From contig JAFGDS010000069.1 of NCBI GenBank assembly GCA_016931995.1, positions 62,001-126,000 on the forward strand: a stretch of 64,000 nucleotides of DNA, given 5' to 3'. A program made the translations under genes and the position numbers. This document shows, in pieces, positions 3,216 through 56,492 of this stretch. This stretch comes from Pirellulales bacterium (lineage in GTDB: Bacteria > Planctomycetota > Planctomycetia > Pirellulales > Thermoguttaceae). Positions within the stretch are counted from its first letter, which is position 1. Each line of letters starts with the position of its first letter. The notes below the pieces were generated by a model, which was given only the letters and a program-made list of their open reading frames with translations, was not told where the DNA came from and searched no databases.

Positions 3216-3282
3216 GTGTGCCACTGGCTTTGCCAGTGCTTGTCCGGCTAGACTGTTGACACACTGGCGGAGCCAGTGCCAC
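3216..3282. repeat. Paired CACTGGC-N3-GCCAGTG palindromes
   Basis: One element reads GTGCCACTGGCTTTGCCAGT. About 20 bases further on a second reads in the opposite sense with a GGAG-type loop. Each is a 7-bp hairpin, and the two together form a larger stem. This is the commonest repeat family in the window (also at 21659, 31743, 38548, 44106, 44915, 52719 and 56429). Confidence 0.85.
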
Positions 3283-21572: not shown

Positions 21573-21980
21573 GGGAAACGGGAGTCGGCGAGGTGAACGG
21601 GTGTAAACCGGCAAGTCACTATAACACAACCGGCACTGCCCTACCACGTCATCCCTTGAGTGCCACGGGCTTTGCCAGTGCGTGTGCCACTGGCTCCGCC
21701 GGTGCCGTCACGGCCGGGTGCCACTGGCTCCGCCAGTGCCGTCACGGGAGCGCGTTCGGGACCCAATCCCCAATCCCCAGCCAAAGAGCACTGGCGGAGC
21801 CAGTGGCACACGAGGGCAGCACGGGCAAAGCCAGTGGTACTCAAGGGGTACCCGGGCGCTTGGCATCTTGGGAGCCAGGCCGTAGACTGGAGGTAGGAGT
21901 TGGGAGCCCCACTTACGGGGAGACGTGCGGGCTCCCGTCGTCGAGTGTTGCTACCCGTCGGTCCCCCAGCGAGGTCCGCC
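21573..21980. other. Repeat-filled gap between divergent ruvB and the WXG100 cluster
   Basis: Most of this gap consists of CACTGGC-family palindromes (21659-21842). What remains, 21845-21980, should carry the promoter of the secretion-like operon; no clear promoter motif could be assigned. No gene is recognised. Confidence 0.6.
21659..21842. repeat. Cluster of five CACTGGC-type palindromes
   Basis: Elements at about 21660, 21684 and 21718 read in one direction; those at 21788 and 21824 read in the other. Several differ at one or two bases (CCACGGGC, GCCGGTG). The two blocks could fold on each other as a long stem upstream of the WXG100 genes. Confidence 0.8.
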
Positions 21981-22253
21981 ATGCCCCAAGCCATTGTCGA
22001 TCCCGAGGAACTCCGGCAGTTCGCCCGAAATCTCCAGCGATTCAACCAGGAGCTACAGGACCGCTTGTCGGTGCTTGCCGGACAGTTGGCCGCGCTGGGC
22101 AAGACGTGGCGCGACCAGGAACAGAAGAAGTTCGTCGAGGAGTTCGAGCAGCAGACGCGGACGATGGCTCGATTCGTCGAGCTCACCGAGCAGCACATCC
22201 CCTATTTGCTCCGCAAGGCTGAACTCATCGACCAGTATCTGCAGCAGAGGTAG
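21981..22253 (+). CDS. WXG100-like small helical protein
   Basis: A 90-residue, almost fully helical protein with no signal peptide. Two amphipathic helices flank a turn containing GKTWRDQE, with W43, R44 and D45 at the place of the W-x-G turn of WXG100/ESAT-6 proteins. After the turn comes FVEEFEQQTRTMARF, like the W-x-G to downstream-acidic arrangement of secreted substrates. It lacks the classic glycine. The start MPQAIVDPEEL has GAGG eight bases upstream; earlier in-frame codons are repeat-derived. It lies nine bases before the next gene in a run leading to an FtsK-type ATPase, which is the main reason for the secretion-related call. Confidence 0.75.
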   Translation: MPQAIVDPEELRQFARNLQRFNQELQDRLSVLAGQLAALGKTWRDQEQKKFVEEFEQQTRTMARFVELTEQHIPYLLRKAELIDQYLQQR

Positions 22254-22262
22254 CCGGAGCCG

Positions 22263-22871
22263 ATGACGCGGTCCGCCAAGCTCACCTCGATCGACGCCGT
22301 GCGCGAGCTGGCCGCGGCGTTGCGCGCGTTCGGCGAGGAGATGACCGGCGCCCTGGACCACCTGGAGTTGAGCGTCCGCCGGGCGCGGGAATGGATCCAG
22401 CACGACCGGAAGGAGTATTGGCAACACGAGGTCCGTCGCGGCGGCGAGAAGGTGGGCGAGGCCCGGGCGGACCTGGAGAAAGCCCTGAACTACCGCGGCG
22501 TGTCGGGTCAGGCGCCCAGTTGCCGGCAGGAGCGGGCGATGCTCGAGGCGGCCGTGCGCCGGGCGCGCATTGCGGAAGAGAAGATCGAGGTGGTGCGGCA
22601 CTGGACCCACGCCATCGACCACGCCGCGATCGAACTGGCCGGCGGCCAGGCCCCGGCGGTGGATTGGCTTCAGAGCGAGCTGCCCCGCGCGTTGGCCGCG
22701 TTGGCGCGGATGACCGAGGCGCTGGAATCGTACGCCGAGGCGACCGGCCAGGCCGAGGGCCCATCCTCGCCCGCGTCCGTTGTTTCAGAGGGCAAAGCAG
22801 ATGAGAACGTGGGACCTGAACACGCCGGCGGCGAGGCTTCGCCAGGCGATGAAGGATCTCAACCTGGCTAG
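22263..22871 (+). CDS. Unknown coiled-coil protein of the WXG100/FtsK cluster
   Basis: The family is not recognised. The 202-residue protein is predicted to be long helices from residue 8 to about 165 (ELAAALRAFGEEMTGALDHLEL, then EARADLEKALNYRG and RARIAEEKIEVVRHWTHAID), followed by an acidic Gly/Ser/Pro-rich tail. It has no signal peptide or membrane segment. It sits between two WXG-like proteins and overlaps the second by 71 bases in another frame. A chaperone, adaptor or structural partner of the small proteins is plausible. The start at 22263 follows CCGGAGCCG. Confidence 0.7.
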   Translation: MTRSAKLTSIDAVRELAAALRAFGEEMTGALDHLELSVRRAREWIQHDRKEYWQHEVRRGGEKVGEARADLEKALNYRGVSGQAPSCRQERAMLEAAVRRARIAEEKIEVVRHWTHAIDHAAIELAGGQAPAVDWLQSELPRALAALARMTEALESYAEATGQAEGPSSPASVVSEGKADENVGPEHAGGEASPGDEGSQPG

Positions 22872-23028
22872 ACGCCGCCTGGGCGACCAATGGCAGGACG
22901 ACAAGTTCCGCGAGTTCCAGGAGACGTTCCTCGACCCGCTGGAGCCGAAAATCCGCACGTTGCTCACCTCGCTGGCCGAATTGGACGAGGTGCTCGCGAA
23001 GGCGGAACGGGCGTGCGGGGAGAATTAA
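22801..23028 (+). CDS. Second WXG100-like small helical protein
   Basis: A 75-residue helical hairpin: MRTWDLNTPAARLRQAMKDL as first helix, then RLGDQWQDDKFREFQETFLD with W31, Q32, D33 at the turn, then a long helix KIRTLLTSLAELDEVLAKAE. The W-x-D followed by F-x-x-x-F resembles WXG100 proteins and parallels the turn of the first protein in the cluster (W-R-D). The start ATG is inside the preceding gene. Frame analysis supports it because the helical heptad pattern begins there. It probably forms a homodimer or heterodimer with the first WXG-like protein. Confidence 0.75.
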   Translation: MRTWDLNTPAARLRQAMKDLNLARRRLGDQWQDDKFREFQETFLDPLEPKIRTLLTSLAELDEVLAKAERACGEN

Positions 23029-23046
23029 TAGGTTGCAGGACGCGCC

Positions 23047-26000
23047 ATGACTGATGGATCCTTCTCGGCGAATCGACCGCGAGAGCTTTGGGCGCAGCTT
23101 CGATCGCTTGTCGCCCGGCGCGCGCCGGCCGAGGCCGATCTGGCCGCGAACCGCGCGAAGCAGCGGGAGGAAACGGAGCGGCAGTTCCGCGAGGCGCGGC
23201 GGAAACTCGCCGACGAACTCGATGCCGAGCGGAGCGCCTTGGAGACGCGGTACACGACCGCGCGCAAGGCGGTGGTCGAGCGATGCGGGCAACAACACGC
23301 CGCGCTGGCGGACGAGTATCGTCACGCCCGGAAGGTGGCGGACGAGCAGTTCAAACGAGCTGAAGTCGGCCAGAAGCAGCGGCTCAAGGAAGCCCGCTGG
23401 GAGGCGACGACCGTCTTCGAGGCGACCAAAGACGCGCCGGCGGCGCGGTTGAAACAGCTCGAAGAGGATTTGGCGGCGAAACAGGAGGAGCTGGCGGCGT
23501 TGCGCGGTCAGGCGGACGCGCTGCTCGAGCGGCGTTGGCAGCGGCCGTCCCCGATCGAGCCGGCGCCGTCCGCCGCGCCGGCGGCGATCGAGCCGGCCGA
23601 GCACTTCGCCCAGCTTGTGGAGCAGGCGAACCGGCAATGGGAGGCCCTCCTGGGCCAGCGGATCGCGCGGCAGTTCGAGGAAGGACGGCCGGTGCTGTAT
23701 TTCTTCCTCTGCTGGACGGTCGCCATCGTGCCTTGCGGCGCGGCGATGGGTTGGAGCAACTGGCTGTGGTTTCCGGCCAGCGCGGTGGCGGGGGTGTTGC
23801 TTTGGGGTGGGCTGGGCGTCTGGCTTTATCGGCTCGCCCGGCGGCAGACGGCCGAGGTCCACGCGATGCTGCGTCAGACCGCGGTCGACGCGGAGGCGGC
23901 CGCCGGTCGGGCTCGCGAGGCGGCCCGTGCGATCTGCCAGCGCGAGAACGCCGCGATTGCCCAGCGCCTCGAGCGCGAACTGAGCGGCGCGACGGAGCAG
24001 TCATCGGCGGCCCTGGCCGAGATCCACGCCCGCCGCCAGACCGCCCTGGAAGAAGCCGACGCGCACTATCCGCCGCGGCTGACCGAGTTGATCGTCCAAC
24101 GCGAGCGGGAGTTGGATCGGCTCGAAGAGGAGTACACCCGGCAGCTTGAACAGTGGAACCAGGCCCGCGCGACCCGGACCGCCCAGCTCGAATCCCAATA
24201 CTCCGACCAGGTCAAAGAGCAAGAGGATGACTACCGGCAAGCCTGGGACGAGCTTTCGCGGAACTGGCGGGAGGGCATGGCCGCGTTCGAGCAGGGCGTG
24301 GATGAATTGAATGCCGCGACGGCGGATCTCTTTCTCGACTGGCAGACCCGCGAGCCGAGCCAGTGGAAGCCGGCGGCGGAAAATCCCCGGGCGGTTCCGT
24401 TCGGTCGGGTCGAGGTGGACCTGGCCCGGCTGGACGGCGGCATTCCCACGGACGAACGGCTCCGGCCCGAGCGAACGCGGTTCACCCTACCGGCCCTGGT
24501 CCCGTTTCCGCAGCGGCCGGTGGTATTCGCCGCCCGCGACGAGGGCCGCGCCCGCGCGGTCGAGGCCATCCAGGCGATCATGCTGCGGATGCTGACGGCG
24601 GCGCGGCCGGGCAAGGTGCGGTTCACGGTGATCGACCCCGTGGGTCTCGGCGAGAGCTTTTCGGCCTTCATGCACCTGGCCGACTTCGACGAGCAGATCA
24701 TCACCAGCCGCATCTGGACCGAGAGCAGCCACGTCGAGCAGCGTCTGGTCGATTTGACCGAGCACATGGAGAACGTCATCCAGGTGTATCTTCGCAACGA
24801 GTTCGAGACGATCCAGGAGTACAACGATTTCGCGGGCGAGATGGCCGAGCCGTTTCGCGTGCTCGTGGTGGCCAACTTCCCGGCCAATTTCACCGAGGCG
24901 TCGGCCCGGCGGCTGGTGAGCATCGTCGCCAGCGGCGCCCGCTGCGGCGTGCATGGCCTAATCAGCGTCGATACGCGGCTGAAGCTGCCGCACAACTTCG
25001 ACCTGGCCGATCTGGAGTCGCAGTCGCTGCACCTGGAATGGGAAGACGGCCGGTTCGCGTGGCGCGACGCCGAGATGGCCGAATTGCCGCTGGAAATGGA
25101 ACGCCCGCCGGAGCCGCGCACGTTCACCGAACTGGTCCGCGTGGTGGGCCAACGGCTGCACGAGGTGGACCGGGTCGAGGTGCCCTTCGAGTTCGTCGTG
25201 CCCGGCGAGGAAAAATGGTGGCGCGGCGACGCCGCCCGCGAGTTGGTCGTGCCGCTGGGCCGCGCCGGCGCGATGAAGCTCCAGCATCTGAACCTGGGTC
25301 GCGGCACGGCGCAGCACGTTTTGGTGGCCGGCAAGACGGGCTCGGGCAAGTCGAACCTGCTGCACGCCATTGTCACGAGCGTGGCGTTGTGGTACGGGCC
25401 GGACCAGGTCGAGTTGTATCTGGTCGACTTCAAAAAGGGCGTCGAGTTCAAGCCCTACGCCGAGTTCGGGTTGCCCCACGCTCGCGTCGTCGCGGTCGAG
25501 AGCGAGCGGGAGTTTGGCCTGAGCGTGCTGGAGCAGCTCGACGCGGAGCTGAAGCGCCGCGGCGACTTGTTCCGGCAGCGGGGCGTGCAGGACCTGGCCG
25601 GCCACCGCCGCGCTCGGCCCGACGAGCCGATGCCGCGCGTCCTCCTGGTGATCGACGAATTCCAGGAGCTGTTTGTCGAGGATGACCGGCTCGCCCAGAG
25701 CGCGGCATTGCTCTTGGACCGTCTGGTCCGCCAAGGCCGGGCGTTCGGGATGCACGTCTTGTTGGGCTCCCAGACCTTGGCCGGAGCGTATTCGCTGCCC
25801 CGGGCGACGATCGGGCAAATGGCCGTGCGGATCGCGCTGCAGTGCTCCGAAGCCGACGCCCACTTGATCCTGAGCGAGGAGAACACGGCCGCGCGGCTTC
25901 TGGCGCGGCCCGGCGAGGCGATCTACAACGACGCCAACGGCCTGTACGAAGGCAACCATCCGTTCCAGGTGGTGTGGCTGCCCGACCACGAGCGAACGGC

Positions 26001-26943
26001 CTATCTGGAGCGGATCCGCCAGTGGGCCGCCGCGAACGGTTGCCGCACGGCGCCGCCGATCGTGTTCGAGGGCAACGCGGCGGCCGATCCGGCGGGCAAC
26101 CGGCTCTTGGCCGAGGCGCTGGCCGCGCCGGCGTGGCCAGCGCCGGCCCCCTCGGCCACCGCGTGGCTCGGCGCGGCCGTGGCCATCAAAGATCCCACGT
26201 CGGTCGTCTTTCAGCGGCAGGGCGGCGGCAACCTGCTTTTGGTGGGCCACCGCGAGGAGTCGGCCTTGGGCATCCTGGCCGTGGCCGTGCTTGGCCTGGC
26301 GGCCCAGATTCCACCGGGCGCGGACGGCGACGCGCCGACGTTCGTGGTGCTCGACGGCACGCGGCCCGACGCGCCCGAGGCCGGCTACTGGGAAAGGCTC
26401 GGCCAGATCGTCCCCCAGGGAATTTGCCTGGCCACGCCGCGGGACATGCCCGAGGCAATTGCCCAGGTGACGGCGGAACTCGACCGGCGCCACGAGCAAG
26501 GCGTCGAAGGGGCGGCGCCGATGTTCCTGATCGTCCACGACCTGGGCCGGTTCCGCGATCTGCGGCGGGAGGAAGAAACGTTCCGCTTCTCCGCCGCGGA
26601 CGACGATCAGCCGCCCAGTCCCGCCAAGCAGTTCGGCCGAATCCTCCGCGACGGCCCCCCGCTGGGCATCCACGCGCTGGTCTGGTGCGACACGTGCAAC
26701 ACGCTGGGCCGGTGGCTCGAACGTCAGGCGATCCACGATCTGGAGAAACGCGTGGCGTTTCAGATGAGCGCGGGCGATTCGAGCACGCTGATCGACTCGG
26801 CGGACGCCGGCCGGCTGGGCGCCCACCGCGCGATCCTCTACGACGAGGGCCTGGGCCAGATGGAGAAATTTCGCCCCTACGCCCCGCCCGGCAAGACGTG
26901 GCTGGACGAGGCGCAGGCAAGGTTTCAGTCGCGAGGGAAATGA
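23047..26943 (+). CDS. Membrane-anchored FtsK/SpoIIIE-type ATPase (EccC/EssC-like)
   Basis: A 1298-residue protein. Residues 1-170 are highly charged coiled coil. Two membrane helices follow at about 217-265 (VLYFFLCWTVAIVPCGAAM and a second), then another long coiled coil (270-440). The rest appears to be three FtsK-like modules. The first (about 455-700) has a lost P-loop near 495-502 (AARDEGRA) and a hydrophobic strand without the Asp (FRVLVVANF). The second keeps Walker A GKTGSGKS (K768) and Walker B VLLVIDEFQE (D870, E871). The third (about 1030-1298) has GHREESA in place of a P-loop and VHDLGRF. This matches the three-ATPase plan of type VII secretion motors, although there the first domain is usually the active one. 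Confidence 0.87.
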   Translation: MTDGSFSANRPRELWAQLRSLVARRAPAEADLAANRAKQREETERQFREARRKLADELDAERSALETRYTTARKAVVERCGQQHAALADEYRHARKVADEQFKRAEVGQKQRLKEARWEATTVFEATKDAPAARLKQLEEDLAAKQEELAALRGQADALLERRWQRPSPIEPAPSAAPAAIEPAEHFAQLVEQANRQWEALLGQRIARQFEEGRPVLYFFLCWTVAIVPCGAAMGWSNWLWFPASAVAGVLLWGGLGVWLYRLARRQTAEVHAMLRQTAVDAEAAAGRAREAARAICQRENAAIAQRLERELSGATEQSSAALAEIHARRQTALEEADAHYPPRLTELIVQRERELDRLEEEYTRQLEQWNQARATRTAQLESQYSDQVKEQEDDYRQAWDELSRNWREGMAAFEQGVDELNAATADLFLDWQTREPSQWKPAAENPRAVPFGRVEVDLARLDGGIPTDERLRPERTRFTLPALVPFPQRPVVFAARDEGRARAVEAIQAIMLRMLTAARPGKVRFTVIDPVGLGESFSAFMHLADFDEQIITSRIWTESSHVEQRLVDLTEHMENVIQVYLRNEFETIQEYNDFAGEMAEPFRVLVVANFPANFTEASARRLVSIVASGARCGVHGLISVDTRLKLPHNFDLADLESQSLHLEWEDGRFAWRDAEMAELPLEMERPPEPRTFTELVRVVGQRLHEVDRVEVPFEFVVPGEEKWWRGDAARELVVPLGRAGAMKLQHLNLGRGTAQHVLVAGKTGSGKSNLLHAIVTSVALWYGPDQVELYLVDFKKGVEFKPYAEFGLPHARVVAVESEREFGLSVLEQLDAELKRRGDLFRQRGVQDLAGHRRARPDEPMPRVLLVIDEFQELFVEDDRLAQSAALLLDRLVRQGRAFGMHVLLGSQTLAGAYSLPRATIGQMAVRIALQCSEADAHLILSEENTAARLLARPGEAIYNDANGLYEGNHPFQVVWLPDHERTAYLERIRQWAAANGCRTAPPIVFEGNAAADPAGNRLLAEALAAPAWPAPAPSATAWLGAAVAIKDPTSVVFQRQGGGNLLLVGHREESALGILAVAVLGLAAQIPPGADGDAPTFVVLDGTRPDAPEAGYWERLGQIVPQGICLATPRDMPEAIAQVTAELDRRHEQGVEGAAPMFLIVHDLGRFRDLRREEETFRFSAADDDQPPSPAKQFGRILRDGPPLGIHALVWCDTCNTLGRWLERQAIHDLEKRVAFQMSAGDSSTLIDSADAGRLGAHRAILYDEGLGQMEKFRPYAPPGKTWLDEAQARFQSRGK

Positions 26944-31742: not shown

Positions 31743-31806
31743 GTGCCACTGGCTCTGCCAGTGCTCTGAGAGACTGACATTCGCGCACTGGCGTTGCCAG
31801 TGGCGC
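31743..31806. repeat. Pair of facing CACTGGC-type palindromes
   Basis: Elements at 31743-31764 and 31785-31806 face each other in the gap between the ABC ATPase and its permease gene, which would otherwise be a single operon. Confidence 0.8.
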
Positions 31807-38441: not shown

Positions 38442-40670
38442 CTAGCGGGCCCCGTGGCACGCGGCGGGGCCGTCCGCGTCCAGGGCCGCCATCTCGGCCG
38501 CCGACAGGCCGTACAGGCTCTCGACAATCTCGTCGATCCGCCGTTGTGTGCCACTGGCTTTGCCAGTGCGGACATTCTGGTGCGCGAGGGCACTGGCGGA
38601 GCCAGTGGCACTCGGTACAGCGGCACTGGCGGAGCCAGTGGCACTCGCGGGAAAGGCGGAGCCGGGGGGACTCGGTGGAGAAACAGCCAGGTCCTGCCGA
38701 ACCAGATCAACCAGCTCATCGTGACGGGCGAGGTCGGCCGCATCGGTCGGATCGATCGGCCGGATCGGGGCGGCGGCCAGCACGCGGCCATTGATTTCCA
38801 GGCCCACGCCCCGCCGCTTCGCGTGATGCGAAAACCACGCGGCCAGAAGCCGGCTCCGCAAAACCGCCGCGAAGTAGAACAGGTGTTCGGGCCTCTCCAC
38901 CGCGGGCACGAACACGTTCACGCTGAACGGCACGTAGGCGGGCGCCACCGCCGGCACGAACGTCGGCCGCCGCGCCATCTGGACCGAGAGGATCTTCGGC
39001 GCGAGCCAGACGCCCTCGTCGCGGGGCCAGTGGAGCTGCCACCACGGGCGCGCGCCCGCGAGGGTTTCGCGCCGCGCGTCCATCACGGGGCGGAACCGCG
39101 CGAGATGGGCGCGGATCGTCGGGAAGGCGTCGATATCGGGGCACGTCCGCGCCGTGGAGTAGATCAGCCGGCGCGAGGGGCAAGCGGCCCGGCCGTCGCG
39201 GACCAGGTCGCGCGCATCGAAATACGGTCGCACCAGCGTCTGTTCCCGCGGGGGCAGGGCCAGAGCGTCCAGCTCTTCTGGCGTCAAAGAGAACACGCCC
39301 TGGCCGACCGTCCAGCGGTCGCCGAAACGGCGGTTCGTGCGGGCGTTGATCGCGGCGGGGTTCTCGGCGATGCCCTGGCGGACGATGCCCAGGCGGCCCA
39401 GCGGCACGTCCCGTGCCAGCTTGGCCAGGAGTTCGTCCCGCGGCGGCTCCAGGTCGATCCGGCCGTCGAGGAAGAGCGACTCGCAATGTTTGGAGAAGAC
39501 AACCAGGGGCGCGGAACCGTCCAGGTAGGAAGCGACCGACCTGGACGCGGCGGACGGGATCCGCTTGATCGTGGTGGGCGGCTGGTGGTTTGACGTCTTG
39601 ACCAGTCGCAAGATCAAGTGCCGTCCCGCCACGCCGGGAAACACGGGCACGTTGCCCAGATCGAAAAGCTCTTCCACGCGGGCCTCGCGGCGGAGGCGTT
39701 CGATCAAAGCGGCGGCCCCTCGGCCCGCGGTCCAGTAGGCGTTGACAACAAACGCCAGCCGGCCGCCGTCGCTCAGCAAATCAAGGCCGCGATGGAGGAA
39801 GAAGTGCCACAGGTCCATCCGGGCCGCGCGCCATTGCCGGCCCCAGGGAGTCTGCGCGACGCGATCCAACAGCTCTTTCGCCCCGCGTTCGCGACGATAC
39901 GGCGGGTTGCTCAGCACGAGGTCGAACGCGCCCGGCTCGGGCGGCGGGTCGGCCAGGGCGTCGCCTTGACGGATGTTCTCGGCCAGGAAGCCGGTCGCGC
40001 CGAGCGGGGGCATCGGTCCAGAACCGACCATTTCCAGCCAGAGCGTCCGCCGGGCGGCCAGCACCGCGTCGGCGTCCAGATCGATCCCGTGAAGACGTCG
40101 CGCCAATTCGATCCGCCGCGCCAACCCCGCCCGAGGCTCTCCGGCCAGCAACCGGCGGTACGCCGCCAACAGAAACGCCCCGCAACCGCACGCCGGGTCG
40201 AGGATCGCGAGGTCCTGATGTGCTGCATCGCGCCCCGGAACTGTCCCCATTTTCGCCCCGGGGACTGTCCCCATTTTCGTCTCAGCGAAAATGGGACTGT
40301 CCCCTTCGGTGGAACCATCAAGCGGGCACATCGCCCCCTCGACCATGTACCGCGCGACGCACTCGGGCGTGTAGAAGACGCCCCGGGCCTTGCGGGACGC
40401 GCGCTCGCGGCCGAGCTCTCGCAGATGCAGCCGCCCAAGCGCCTCGGGCTCGTCGGCCACCGGTCCCAGCGCGCCCCATGCGCGGGCCACGTCGGCCGGG
40501 TCCGTCTCGGGGTCGTCCAGGACCGGGTCGAGCCGGTCTCGGGTGAGGGAAACCAGGCCTTCCGCCGGGCCGTCCGGCAGCAGACCACGCCGATGGCATA
40601 GCTCCACAAACGCGGCGTATTGCACCGCGCGTCGCGGGATCGACTCGGACGATTTCTGTTGGGCGGGCAT
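38442..40670 (-). CDS. N6-adenine DNA methylase, Eco57I/TaqI type
   Basis: A 742-residue class I methyltransferase. GVFYTPECVARYMVE (motif X) is followed by ILDPACGCGAFLLAAYR (motif I, D158), HGIDLDADAVLAARRTLWLE (motif II) and the catalytic VLSNPPYRRE (N255-Y258). The C-terminal half is TaqI-like specificity domain (LVRPYFDARDLVRDG and SVNVFVPAVE). No nuclease domain or neighbouring restriction gene is seen, so it may be a solitary methylase or half of a scattered system. Two segments are encoded by palindromic repeats: about residues 123-145, between motifs X and I, and about 676-708 near the C-terminus. Both keep frame. The start has AAGGG upstream. Confidence 0.85.
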   Translation of the reverse strand: MPAQQKSSESIPRRAVQYAAFVELCHRRGLLPDGPAEGLVSLTRDRLDPVLDDPETDPADVARAWGALGPVADEPEALGRLHLRELGRERASRKARGVFYTPECVARYMVEGAMCPLDGSTEGDSPIFAETKMGTVPGAKMGTVPGRDAAHQDLAILDPACGCGAFLLAAYRRLLAGEPRAGLARRIELARRLHGIDLDADAVLAARRTLWLEMVGSGPMPPLGATGFLAENIRQGDALADPPPEPGAFDLVLSNPPYRRERGAKELLDRVAQTPWGRQWRAARMDLWHFFLHRGLDLLSDGGRLAFVVNAYWTAGRGAAALIERLRREARVEELFDLGNVPVFPGVAGRHLILRLVKTSNHQPPTTIKRIPSAASRSVASYLDGSAPLVVFSKHCESLFLDGRIDLEPPRDELLAKLARDVPLGRLGIVRQGIAENPAAINARTNRRFGDRWTVGQGVFSLTPEELDALALPPREQTLVRPYFDARDLVRDGRAACPSRRLIYSTARTCPDIDAFPTIRAHLARFRPVMDARRETLAGARPWWQLHWPRDEGVWLAPKILSVQMARRPTFVPAVAPAYVPFSVNVFVPAVERPEHLFYFAAVLRSRLLAAWFSHHAKRRGVGLEINGRVLAAAPIRPIDPTDAADLARHDELVDLVRQDLAVSPPSPPGSAFPASATGSASAAVPSATGSASALAHQNVRTGKASGTQRRIDEIVESLYGLSAAEMAALDADGPAACHGAR
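38548..38644. repeat. Three CACTGGC-type palindromes inside the methylase gene
   Basis: Elements at 38548-38569, 38590-38611 and 38623-38644. The last two share orientation, and the first is inverted relative to them. They encode an Ala/Thr/Gly/Ser-rich stretch (ATGSASA repeated) near the protein's C-terminus. Confidence 0.85.
40237..40304. repeat. GGGGACTGTCCCCATTTTCG elements inside the methylase gene
   Basis: Two direct copies (40237-40255 and 40260-40279) and one inverted copy (40286-40304) of a CTGTCCCCATTTTCG element. They encode a KMGTVPG-containing stretch between methylase motifs X and I. Confidence 0.85.
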
Positions 40671-44914: not shown

Positions 44915-45020
44915 GTGCCACTGGCTTTGCCAGTGCGCCCGCCGATCGAAGGCTTGGCGATGTATCAACCGGCAACCATGTGCCCCGTGCCCACGCACGC
45001 ACTGGCATAGCCAGTGGCAC
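44915..45020. repeat. Facing CACTGGC-type palindromes 84 bases apart
   Basis: Elements at 44915-44936 and 44999-45020 face each other just after rubrerythrin. The spacer between them (44937-44998) contains no gene. Confidence 0.8.
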
Positions 45021-52718: not shown

Positions 52719-52782
52719 GTGCCACTGGCTTTGCCAGTGCTGAATCGCCTGTGTTTCCGAGCACTGGCGGAGCCAGTGGCAC
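52719..52782. repeat. Facing CACTGGC-type palindromes
   Basis: Elements at 52719-52740 and 52761-52782 face each other across 20 bases. They lie between convergent rubredoxin and sensor kinase genes. Confidence 0.8.
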
Positions 52783-56374: not shown

Positions 56375-56492
56375 CTCCCCTCTCCCGCGCGCGGGAGAGG
56401 GGTCGCACGGTGAGGGGGAGTTCGTTGAGTGCCACTGGCGTTGCCCGTGCATGATCCATGGGCCCCGACAACACTGGCGGAGCCAGTGGCAC
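56375..56492. repeat. CTCTCCCG palindrome plus facing CACTGGC pair
   Basis: The first part (56375-56420) is CCCCTCTCCCGCG/CGCGGGAGAGGGG. Then come palindromes at 56429-56450 (one mismatch) and 56471-56492. Two separate families sit side by side in one gap. Confidence 0.8.

What the first reader, a model, noticed from the sequence alone, without database searches (positions are those of the whole stretch)
21981..26943. Compact WXG100/FtsK cluster resembling a minimal type VII secretion system
Seen: two small helical-hairpin proteins with W-x-D turns at mid-length (W43 of 90; W31 of 75), an unknown coiled-coil protein between them, and a membrane-anchored FtsK/SpoIIIE ATPase in one tight run. 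Known: WXG100 proteins and a membrane FtsK-type ATPase are the two components shared by all ESX/T7SS systems. Inference: a four-gene planctomycete secretion unit lacking the usual EccB/D/E or EsaA/EssA/EssB genes. This is the best candidate in the window for a little-described system.
Basis: partly seen in the sequence, partly recalled or inferred. Interest (0 to 1): 0.78.

Follow-up and report, generated by a model that had tools for sequence, protein, structure and literature searches.

The report
Toxin-less planctomycete WXG100/FtsK export unit
Many planctomycetes carry the same four genes for a membrane-anchored motor and three small helical partner proteins, which look like a stripped-down type VII secretion machine that kept the delivery domain of a toxin but lost the toxin itself; nobody has yet shown what it moves.

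Summary
Window 21981-26943 (+) encodes P1 (WXG100 by Pfam, 51 bits), P2 (helical, no family), P3 (weakly WXG100-like) and P4 (1298 aa; coiled coil, membrane hairpin, coiled coil, three FtsK/EccC-type modules, only the middle one catalytically intact). The order P1-P2-P3-P4 is kept in 63 of 71 planctomycete loci with room to tell, with unrelated flanks. Over 392 Planctomycetota genomes P1, P2 and P4 each occur in 60 and nearly always together. In at least five genomes the genes lie hundreds of kb apart on one contig yet all are retained, so they work together without being neighbours. The P4 tree follows taxonomy, so the unit is mainly inherited, not recently mobile. Relatives on Helicobacter, Caballeronia, Rhodococcus and Deinococcus plasmids join the same WXG protein and ATPase to a helical protein with a C-terminal nuclease or toxin-like domain; P2 is the counterpart of the helical part and never carries a toxin (80 of 80). 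The kind was already noted (2012 footnote naming planctomycetes; 2024 CoCoNuT paper). New here: the exact four-gene composition, the conserved membrane anchor, the missing toxin, and vertical, sometimes dispersed, inheritance. Secretion is inferred, not shown.

The parts
21860..21888 (+). sigma-70-like promoter match upstream of the cassette (TTGGCA-17-TAGACT)
   Evidence: 1 found against 0.1 expected; weak
21981..22253 (+). P1, WXG100 hairpin protein, 90 aa, W43-R-D turn
   Evidence: PF06013 51 bits; 72% mean column identity over 13 genomes; best solved relative H. pylori HP0062, 3fx7, E 8.6e-10
22263..22871 (+). P2, long helical hairpin (residues 3-80 and 88-164) with disordered A/P/E/S-rich tail; no toxin domain
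   Evidence: no Pfam family; AF2 model; tail composition; profile relation to the N-terminal part of toxin-cassette proteins
22801..23028 (+). P3, small helical protein with W31-Q-D turn, 75 aa; start overlaps P2 by 71 bp
   Evidence: weak WXG100; family alignment, same start in relatives
23047..26943 (+). P4, membrane-anchored three-module FtsK/EccC-type ATPase, 1298 aa
23134..23541 (+). P4 first coiled coil (about residues 30-165)
   Evidence: sequence; conserved in length in relatives; extent inferred by eye
23686..23835 (+). P4 membrane hairpin (about residues 214-263)
   Evidence: hydrophobic segments in the N-terminal 45% in 71 of 72 full-length relatives (two in 53, one in 17, three in 1; in the window one passes the threshold and the second is below it)
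23854..24336 (+). P4 second coiled coil (about residues 270-430)
   Evidence: sequence and alignment; extent inferred by eye
24469..25206 (+). P4 module 1, degenerate FtsK-type ATPase fold (no Walker A lysine)
25207..26046 (+). P4 module 2, the only catalytically intact ATPase
25330..25353 (+). P4 module 2 Walker A GKTGSGKS (residues 762-769); Walker B D870-E871 at 25654-25659
   Evidence: invariant in 59 aligned sequences
26134..26940 (+). P4 module 3, degenerate ATPase fold
   Evidence: matches EccC/EssC third-domain structures, Z about 18-21

Best explanation
It is a self-contained, membrane-anchored relative of the type VII secretion motor that has lost its toxin. P4 is expected to form a ring on the cytoplasmic face, held to the inner membrane by a two-helix hairpin and a long coiled-coil stalk; module 2 hydrolyses ATP and modules 1 and 3 are non-catalytic, for assembly and cargo binding. 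P1 and P3 are WXG100-type helical hairpins that dimerise and dock on P4. P2 is the helical trafficking domain that in relatives carries a nuclease or toxin; here it ends in a disordered tail. The most likely action is that P1/P3 load P2 onto the P4 ring, and ATP hydrolysis by module 2 threads or pushes that complex into or across the inner membrane. The cargo would be the unit's own small proteins, not a toxin repertoire. Shown: genes, families, order, co-retention, membrane hairpin by hydrophobicity, catalytic residues, EccC-type fold of the model. Inferred: hexamer, docking, direction of transport, P2 as cargo.
For: P1 is WXG100 and closest in the PDB to HP0062 and EsxB. P4 is nearest to EccC/EssC and far from the FtsK DNA translocase (116 against 20 bits); EccC 4nh0 is the best whole-chain structural match (Foldseek 3.7e-31; VIA Z 24.9 over 719 residues, rmsd 15.3). 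Membrane hairpin in relatives. Order 1-2-3-4 in 63 of 71 loci with unrelated flanks. P1, P2 and P4 each in 60 of 392 genomes, 58 shared for P1/P2 (Fisher p 2e-64) and 57 for P1/P4. Genes dispersed but all kept, e.g. G063 P1 at 2.50 Mb, P2-P3 at 4.30 Mb, P4 at 5.92 Mb. Distant relatives pair the same WXG protein and ATPase with a helical-toxin fusion; P2 relates to that helical part by profile in Rhodococcus (hhalign probability 91%) and Deinococcus (79%), with shuffled controls much lower. Exactly one P1 and one P2 per genome, apart from one short partial P1 match in G269, and no LXG proteins in 15 genomes, so no effector repertoire.
Against: No export experiment exists. P1, P2 and P3 lack the YxxxD/E signal (sequence). 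Most distant ATPases have no clear membrane segment (and stated for CoCoNuT relatives in PMC11090510), so the ancestral job may not have been secretion. No outer-membrane component is linked, and planctomycetes are diderm. P2 homology to toxin trafficking domains is only by position in Helicobacter and weak in Caballeronia. P3 is below the Pfam cut-off. One genome (G146) has P1 and P4 but no detectable P2.
Confidence: 0.58

Rival explanations
1. A cytosolic-side, non-secretory ATPase machine at the membrane: P4 uses WXG-type adaptors and P2 to remodel a protein or nucleic-acid complex for stress response or defence, as guessed for TerY-P/CoCoNuT-linked relatives.
For: Relatives in Caballeronia sit in a TerY-P triad with CARF, VWA, phosphatase and kinase genes; Rhodococcus AH-ZY2 lies next to TerD genes; most distant ATPases lack clear membrane segments; PMC11090510 links such units to defence.
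Against: The planctomycete unit has no Ter, kinase, nuclease or McrBC gene as a constant neighbour, no toxin, and a conserved membrane hairpin; the PADLOC matches for P4 fall on the generic ATPase domain or the coiled coil, and P1-P3 have none.
Confidence: 0.25
2. A mobile type VII secretion element, as the 2012 footnote proposed, spreading between bacteria.
For: Plasmid-borne relatives in four genera; patchy presence in Planctomycetota (60 of 392).
Against: The P4 tree follows family labels (11 changes, minimum 9, shuffled mean 38.7); one copy per genome; genes dispersed on the chromosome in several lineages; flanks are ordinary clade-specific genes.
Confidence: 0.08
3. P4 is a DNA translocase (FtsK/SpoIIIE) and the small proteins are unrelated neighbours.
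For: The middle module superposes well on the FtsK motor (VIA Z 27.4, rmsd 2.6 over 257 residues).
Against: Sequence models favour EccC/EssC over FtsK by 116 to 20 bits; three tandem modules; a second, weaker FtsK-type match exists elsewhere in most genomes; P1/P2 co-occur with P4 even when unlinked.
Confidence: 0.04

Closest known systems
Solo-WXG plus YueA-like three-module ATPase ('mobile versions of T7SS'), Zhang et al. 2012, PMC3482391 table note 6
   Same: WXG protein with an ATPase of three HerA/FtsK domains, only the middle one active; planctomycetes are named.
WXG100/EssC-like unit in Type III-A CoCoNuT and TerY-P loci (PMC11090510; H. pylori island in PMC4978471)
   Same: Two WXG100-like proteins (one without the motif), a coiled-coil protein, an EssC-like ATPase with long coiled coil and only the central module active.
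   Different: There the coiled-coil protein is fused to a nuclease, a DNA-mimic protein follows and the ATPase lacks membrane helices; here no nuclease, a conserved membrane hairpin and no constant defence genes nearby.
H. pylori HP0062 (structure 3fx7) with FtsK-type HP0066
   Same: P1 is closest in the PDB to HP0062, which also has a WRD turn and dimerises (PMC3397514).
   Different: HP0062/HP0066 are described as paralogues of the island's WXG and FtsK genes (PMC4978471); I could not fetch the HP0062-HP0066 locus to compare it.
T7SSa/T7SSb and T7SSc-j (EccC/EssC systems; PMC11217815)
   Same: Membrane FtsK-type ATPase with WXG100 protein.
   Different: No EssB (YukC) or EsaA match in 15 genomes, YukD in one elsewhere; one active module, which is the middle one; diderm non-mycolate host.

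Membership tests
Type VII secretion system (general) | membrane-bound EccC/EssC-type FtsK ATPase | tested here: met
   note curated equivalog cut-offs are not reached (116 against 509 bits)
Type VII secretion system (general) | WXG100 protein encoded with the ATPase | tested here: met
   P1 51 bits, cut-off 27.3
Type VII secretion system (general) | ATPase-dependent export of WXG100 proteins | not testable with these tools
   needs fractionation experiments
Type VII secretion system (general) | YxxxD/E export motif in WXG100 partner (T7SSa) | tested here: not met
   P1 ends Y86-L-Q-Q-R90 in most relatives; none in P2 or P3
T7SSb | EssB/YukC and EsaA | tested here: not met
   0 of 15 cassette-bearing genomes; B. 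subtilis control rings
T7SSb | YukD/EsaB ubiquitin-like protein | tested here: not met
   absent from 14 of 15 genomes, elsewhere in one
T7SSa | EccB | tested here: inconclusive
   0 of 15, but no control genome rang
T7SSa | EccD, EccE, mycosin | not tested
   no constant further gene in the neighbourhood of the cassette, but the families were not searched
Solo-WXG three-module ATPase systems (Zhang 2012) | three HerA/FtsK modules, only the middle active | tested here: met
   Walker A invariant in module 2 only, lysine and acidic Walker B pair missing in modules 1 and 3
Solo-WXG three-module ATPase systems (Zhang 2012) | mobile | tested here: not met
   tree follows family labels, single copy, dispersed genes
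CoCoNuT/TerY-P WXG-FtsK unit | coiled-coil protein fused to nuclease, ATPase without membrane helices, TerY-P or McrBC neighbours | tested here: not met
Polymorphic toxin system | C-terminal toxin domain and immunity gene | tested here: not met
   P2 has no domain beyond the helical part; tails 12-135 residues, A/P/E/S rich, in 80 sequences
FtsK DNA translocase | equivalog-level similarity to FtsK | tested here: not met
   PRK10263 19.8 bits, cut-off 1566

The most novel reading that the evidence does not exclude
A toxin system turned household machine: an ancient, vertically kept, membrane-anchored WXG100/FtsK exporter in diderm planctomycetes whose only cargo is its own P2 (with P1/P3), perhaps building or regulating an envelope structure, without any of the accessory membrane proteins of known type VII systems.
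Probability: 0.35. Interest if true: 0.75.

Novelty: new variant of a known kind. Interest (0 to 1): 0.57.

Why it matters
Type VII secretion is treated as a property of Gram-positive and mycolate bacteria. A four-gene version in about one in six or seven sampled planctomycetes (60 of 392) would define the smallest plausible core of the machine, give a toxin-free and non-pathogenic model for how an EccC-type motor uses WXG proteins, and show how a conflict system can be tamed. It makes the old question of whether WXG/FtsK pairs outside Gram-positives secrete anything directly testable.

Tried and rejected
Searched for a recurrent fifth gene by clustering flanking proteins over about 100 loci: only clade-local synteny and common families. 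P2 by Foldseek and VIA against PDB: only generic long helical hairpins and coiled coils (SMC arms, HlyD, YscO, RipA; best Foldseek E 0.025, VIA Z 11.5, inside the range noted for helical models), so no fold-based function is claimed. PDB sequence matches of P2 to MHC class I are chance (E 0.05 or worse). PADLOC matches of P4 (SspH, mad8, HerA, ZorA) fall on the generic ATPase domain or the coiled coil. Weak extra WXG100 matches in the own genome (E 0.06-0.6, in frames of 581-1389 aa) were not followed as paralogues. Whether module 2 equals EccC D1 or D2 could not be settled: sequence favours D1 but it is also the only catalytically intact one. Could not use another phylum as search centre, and the own genome was not available as a file.
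Full report
OBSERVATION. The four ORFs exist as described. P1 (21981-22253, 90 aa) is WXG100 by Pfam (51.0 bits, cut-off 27.3). P3 (22801-23028, 75 aa) is a weak match (16.4 bits). P2 (22263-22871, 202 aa) has no family. P4 (23047-26943, 1298 aa) carries FtsK_SpoIIIE at residues 733-910 and is nearest to EccCa, EssC and EccCb models (116, 95 and 88 bits) while the FtsK DNA translocase model gives 20. P3 begins inside the 3' end of P2 (71 bp overlap); relatives share that start residue pattern.

CONSERVATION. In 40 genomes drawn around the window's own, P4 has full-length or near-full-length relatives at 41-61% identity in about 18. Around them the order P1-P2-P3-P4 recurs with different neighbours. 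A scan of GTDB genomes with the P1 alignment found 551 pattern matches, 529 of them confirmed by tblastn; the 80 best are planctomycete records, except one contig labelled Acidobacteria. Of the 71 of these with at least 1.5 kb after P1, 63 show all four genes, same strand, same order. Clustering of flanking proteins shows only clade-local synteny, so the unit is exactly four genes.

CO-RETENTION. Across the same 392 Planctomycetota genomes P1 is found in 60, P2 in 60 and the P4-specific module 1 in 60. P1 and P2 share 58 genomes (Fisher p 2e-64); P1 and P4 share 57 (comparison of the lists; those lacking one are mostly incomplete MAGs). Each genome has one P1 and one P2, apart from a short partial second P1 match in G269. 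In several lineages the operon has come apart: on one contig, G063 has P1 at 2.50 Mb, P2-P3 at 4.30 Mb and P4 at 5.92 Mb; G144 has 0.71, 2.66 and 0.24 Mb; G393 has 2.83, 2.33 and 2.50 Mb; in G190 and G344 P4 lies about 0.7 and 0.5 Mb from P1-P2; in G288 the order is shuffled and P4 is 0.18 Mb away. The genes are kept together in the genome without being kept together on it, which is strong evidence that the products work together.

INHERITANCE. A tree of module 1 from 70 planctomycete rows and five outgroup rows groups strongly by family label: 11 changes where the least possible is 9 and shuffles give 38.7 (quick method; outgroup branches are very long, so only within-phylum grouping is used). 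With single copies and dispersed genes this speaks for old, mainly vertical inheritance with many losses, against a currently mobile element.

ANATOMY OF P4. Residues about 30-165 and 270-430 are coiled coil (by eye). Between them lies a hydrophobic hairpin: of 72 full-length sequences 53 show two segments over threshold in the N-terminal part, 17 one, one three and one none. The model of residues 440-1298 (mean pLDDT 88.6, pTM 0.77) has three ATPase-fold modules. Walker A GKTGSGKS (762-769) and Walker B D870-E871 are in module 2 and essentially invariant; modules 1 and 3 lack the lysine and the acidic pair. Foldseek ranks the T. curvata EccC cytoplasmic domain first (3.7e-31). VIA gives FtsK motors Z about 27 over the middle module alone (rmsd about 2.6-3.2, about 260 residues) and EccC 4nh0 Z 24.9 over 719 residues at rmsd 15.3, that is, the same chain of modules in another relative posture.

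P1, P2, P3. P1 is the most conserved (72% mean column identity) with an invariant W-R-D turn; its best solved relatives are H. pylori HP0062 (E 8.6e-10) and EsxB. HP0062 was described as an ESAT-6-like dimer with WRD turn and a gene cluster holding an FtsK/SpoIIIE protein (PMC3397514). P2 is predicted as two helices of about 78 residues in a hairpin (most blocks pLDDT above 90) followed by a low-confidence tail; the tail is A/P/E/S-rich and 12-135 residues long over 80 sequences.

WHAT P2 IS. tblastn of P4 against plasmids found five records that match far beyond the FtsK core or far better than EccC does: two Rhodococcus, Caballeronia, Deinococcus and Helicobacter. Four of them encode a protein recognised by the planctomycete P1 profile (79, 50, 36 and 25 bits). 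Beside it lies a long helical protein: in Helicobacter it ends in a WHH/colicin-type DNase (Pfam) and is followed by an SMI1/KNR4 gene, a typical immunity family. In Caballeronia the cassette is inside a TerY-P locus. The P2 profile matches the Rhodococcus AH-ZY2 middle protein (E 1.6e-5; hhalign probability 91%) and less strongly the Deinococcus one (79%), while 600 shuffled sequences and 717 flanking proteins reach at most 4.8 and 7.3 bits. A C-x-x-E motif sits at the hairpin tip in P2 and in the Rhodococcus, Deinococcus and Caballeronia proteins (by eye). Helicobacter supports the relation by position only. The C-terminal parts of the Rhodococcus, Deinococcus and Caballeronia proteins have no Pfam family here; calling them toxins rests on their place in the cassette and, for Caballeronia, on the published nuclease fusion of its kin. 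So P2 is best read as the trafficking part of a toxin without the toxin.

MECHANISM. Shown: membrane hairpin by hydrophobicity, one intact ATPase module, EccC-type architecture, three cognate partners, co-retention. Inferred: ring assembly, P1/P3 as adaptors, P2 as cargo, direction of movement. No LXG protein, EssB or EsaA was found in 15 cassette-bearing genomes; B. subtilis served as ringing control. YukD is in one genome, elsewhere. The EccB search had no ringing control and says nothing.

PRIOR ART. [quoted passage not shown] PMC11090510 (2024) describes, next to Type III-A CoCoNuTs, two WXG100 proteins, a coiled-coil-nuclease fusion and an EssC-like ATPase with a long coiled coil, no transmembrane helices and only the central module active. 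PMC4978471 calls the WXG and FtsK pair of H. pylori a minimal T7SS. The planctomycete unit is therefore a new variant, not a new kind. I found no paper in the held library that studies it.

VERDICT. A real, conserved and experimentally approachable toxin-less WXG100/FtsK unit; export function plausible but unproven.

Noticed in passing
window 3222-3278, 21722-21805, 31747-31802, 38552-38640, 44919-45016, 52723-52778, 56472-56488: Palindromic element CACTGGCnnnGCCAGTG occurs 14 times in 64 kb (0.00 expected by shuffling), mostly in pairs; the pair at 21722-21805 lies in the gap just upstream of the cassette. Looks like a REP-type repeat family.
   Followed up: partly
L173:6047-10449 (Helicobacter sp. 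NHP19-012 plasmid): Complete WXG - helical WHH DNase - SMI1/KNR4 - small protein - FtsK ATPase cassette on a plasmid: a toxin-bearing relative of the unit in a Gram-negative.
   Followed up: partly
L172:8159-8587 and L171:11166-11777: In Deinococcus and Rhodococcus pseudokoreensis the ATPase has no clear membrane anchor, but a neighbouring small helical protein ends in a strong membrane segment: perhaps the split form of the anchor that is fused in planctomycete P4.
   Followed up: no
L109:8001-16267: P1 and P2 here are followed not by P4 but by a 586-aa repeat-like protein, a 301-aa protein with one membrane-like segment and a 1138-aa protein with an FHA-like start (by eye).
   Followed up: no
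L191:5042-8631 (G146): P1 directly followed by a shorter P4 relative with no detectable P2 or P3: a possible two-gene form.
   Followed up: partly
L088: A contig labelled Acidobacteria carries a planctomycete-type P1 alone; possibly a wrongly binned contig.
   Followed up: no
P0004 residues 728-992: Phage family phrog_1358 (FtsK/SpoIIIE-like, 'moron') matches P4 better (158 bits) than the curated EccC models do.
   Followed up: no
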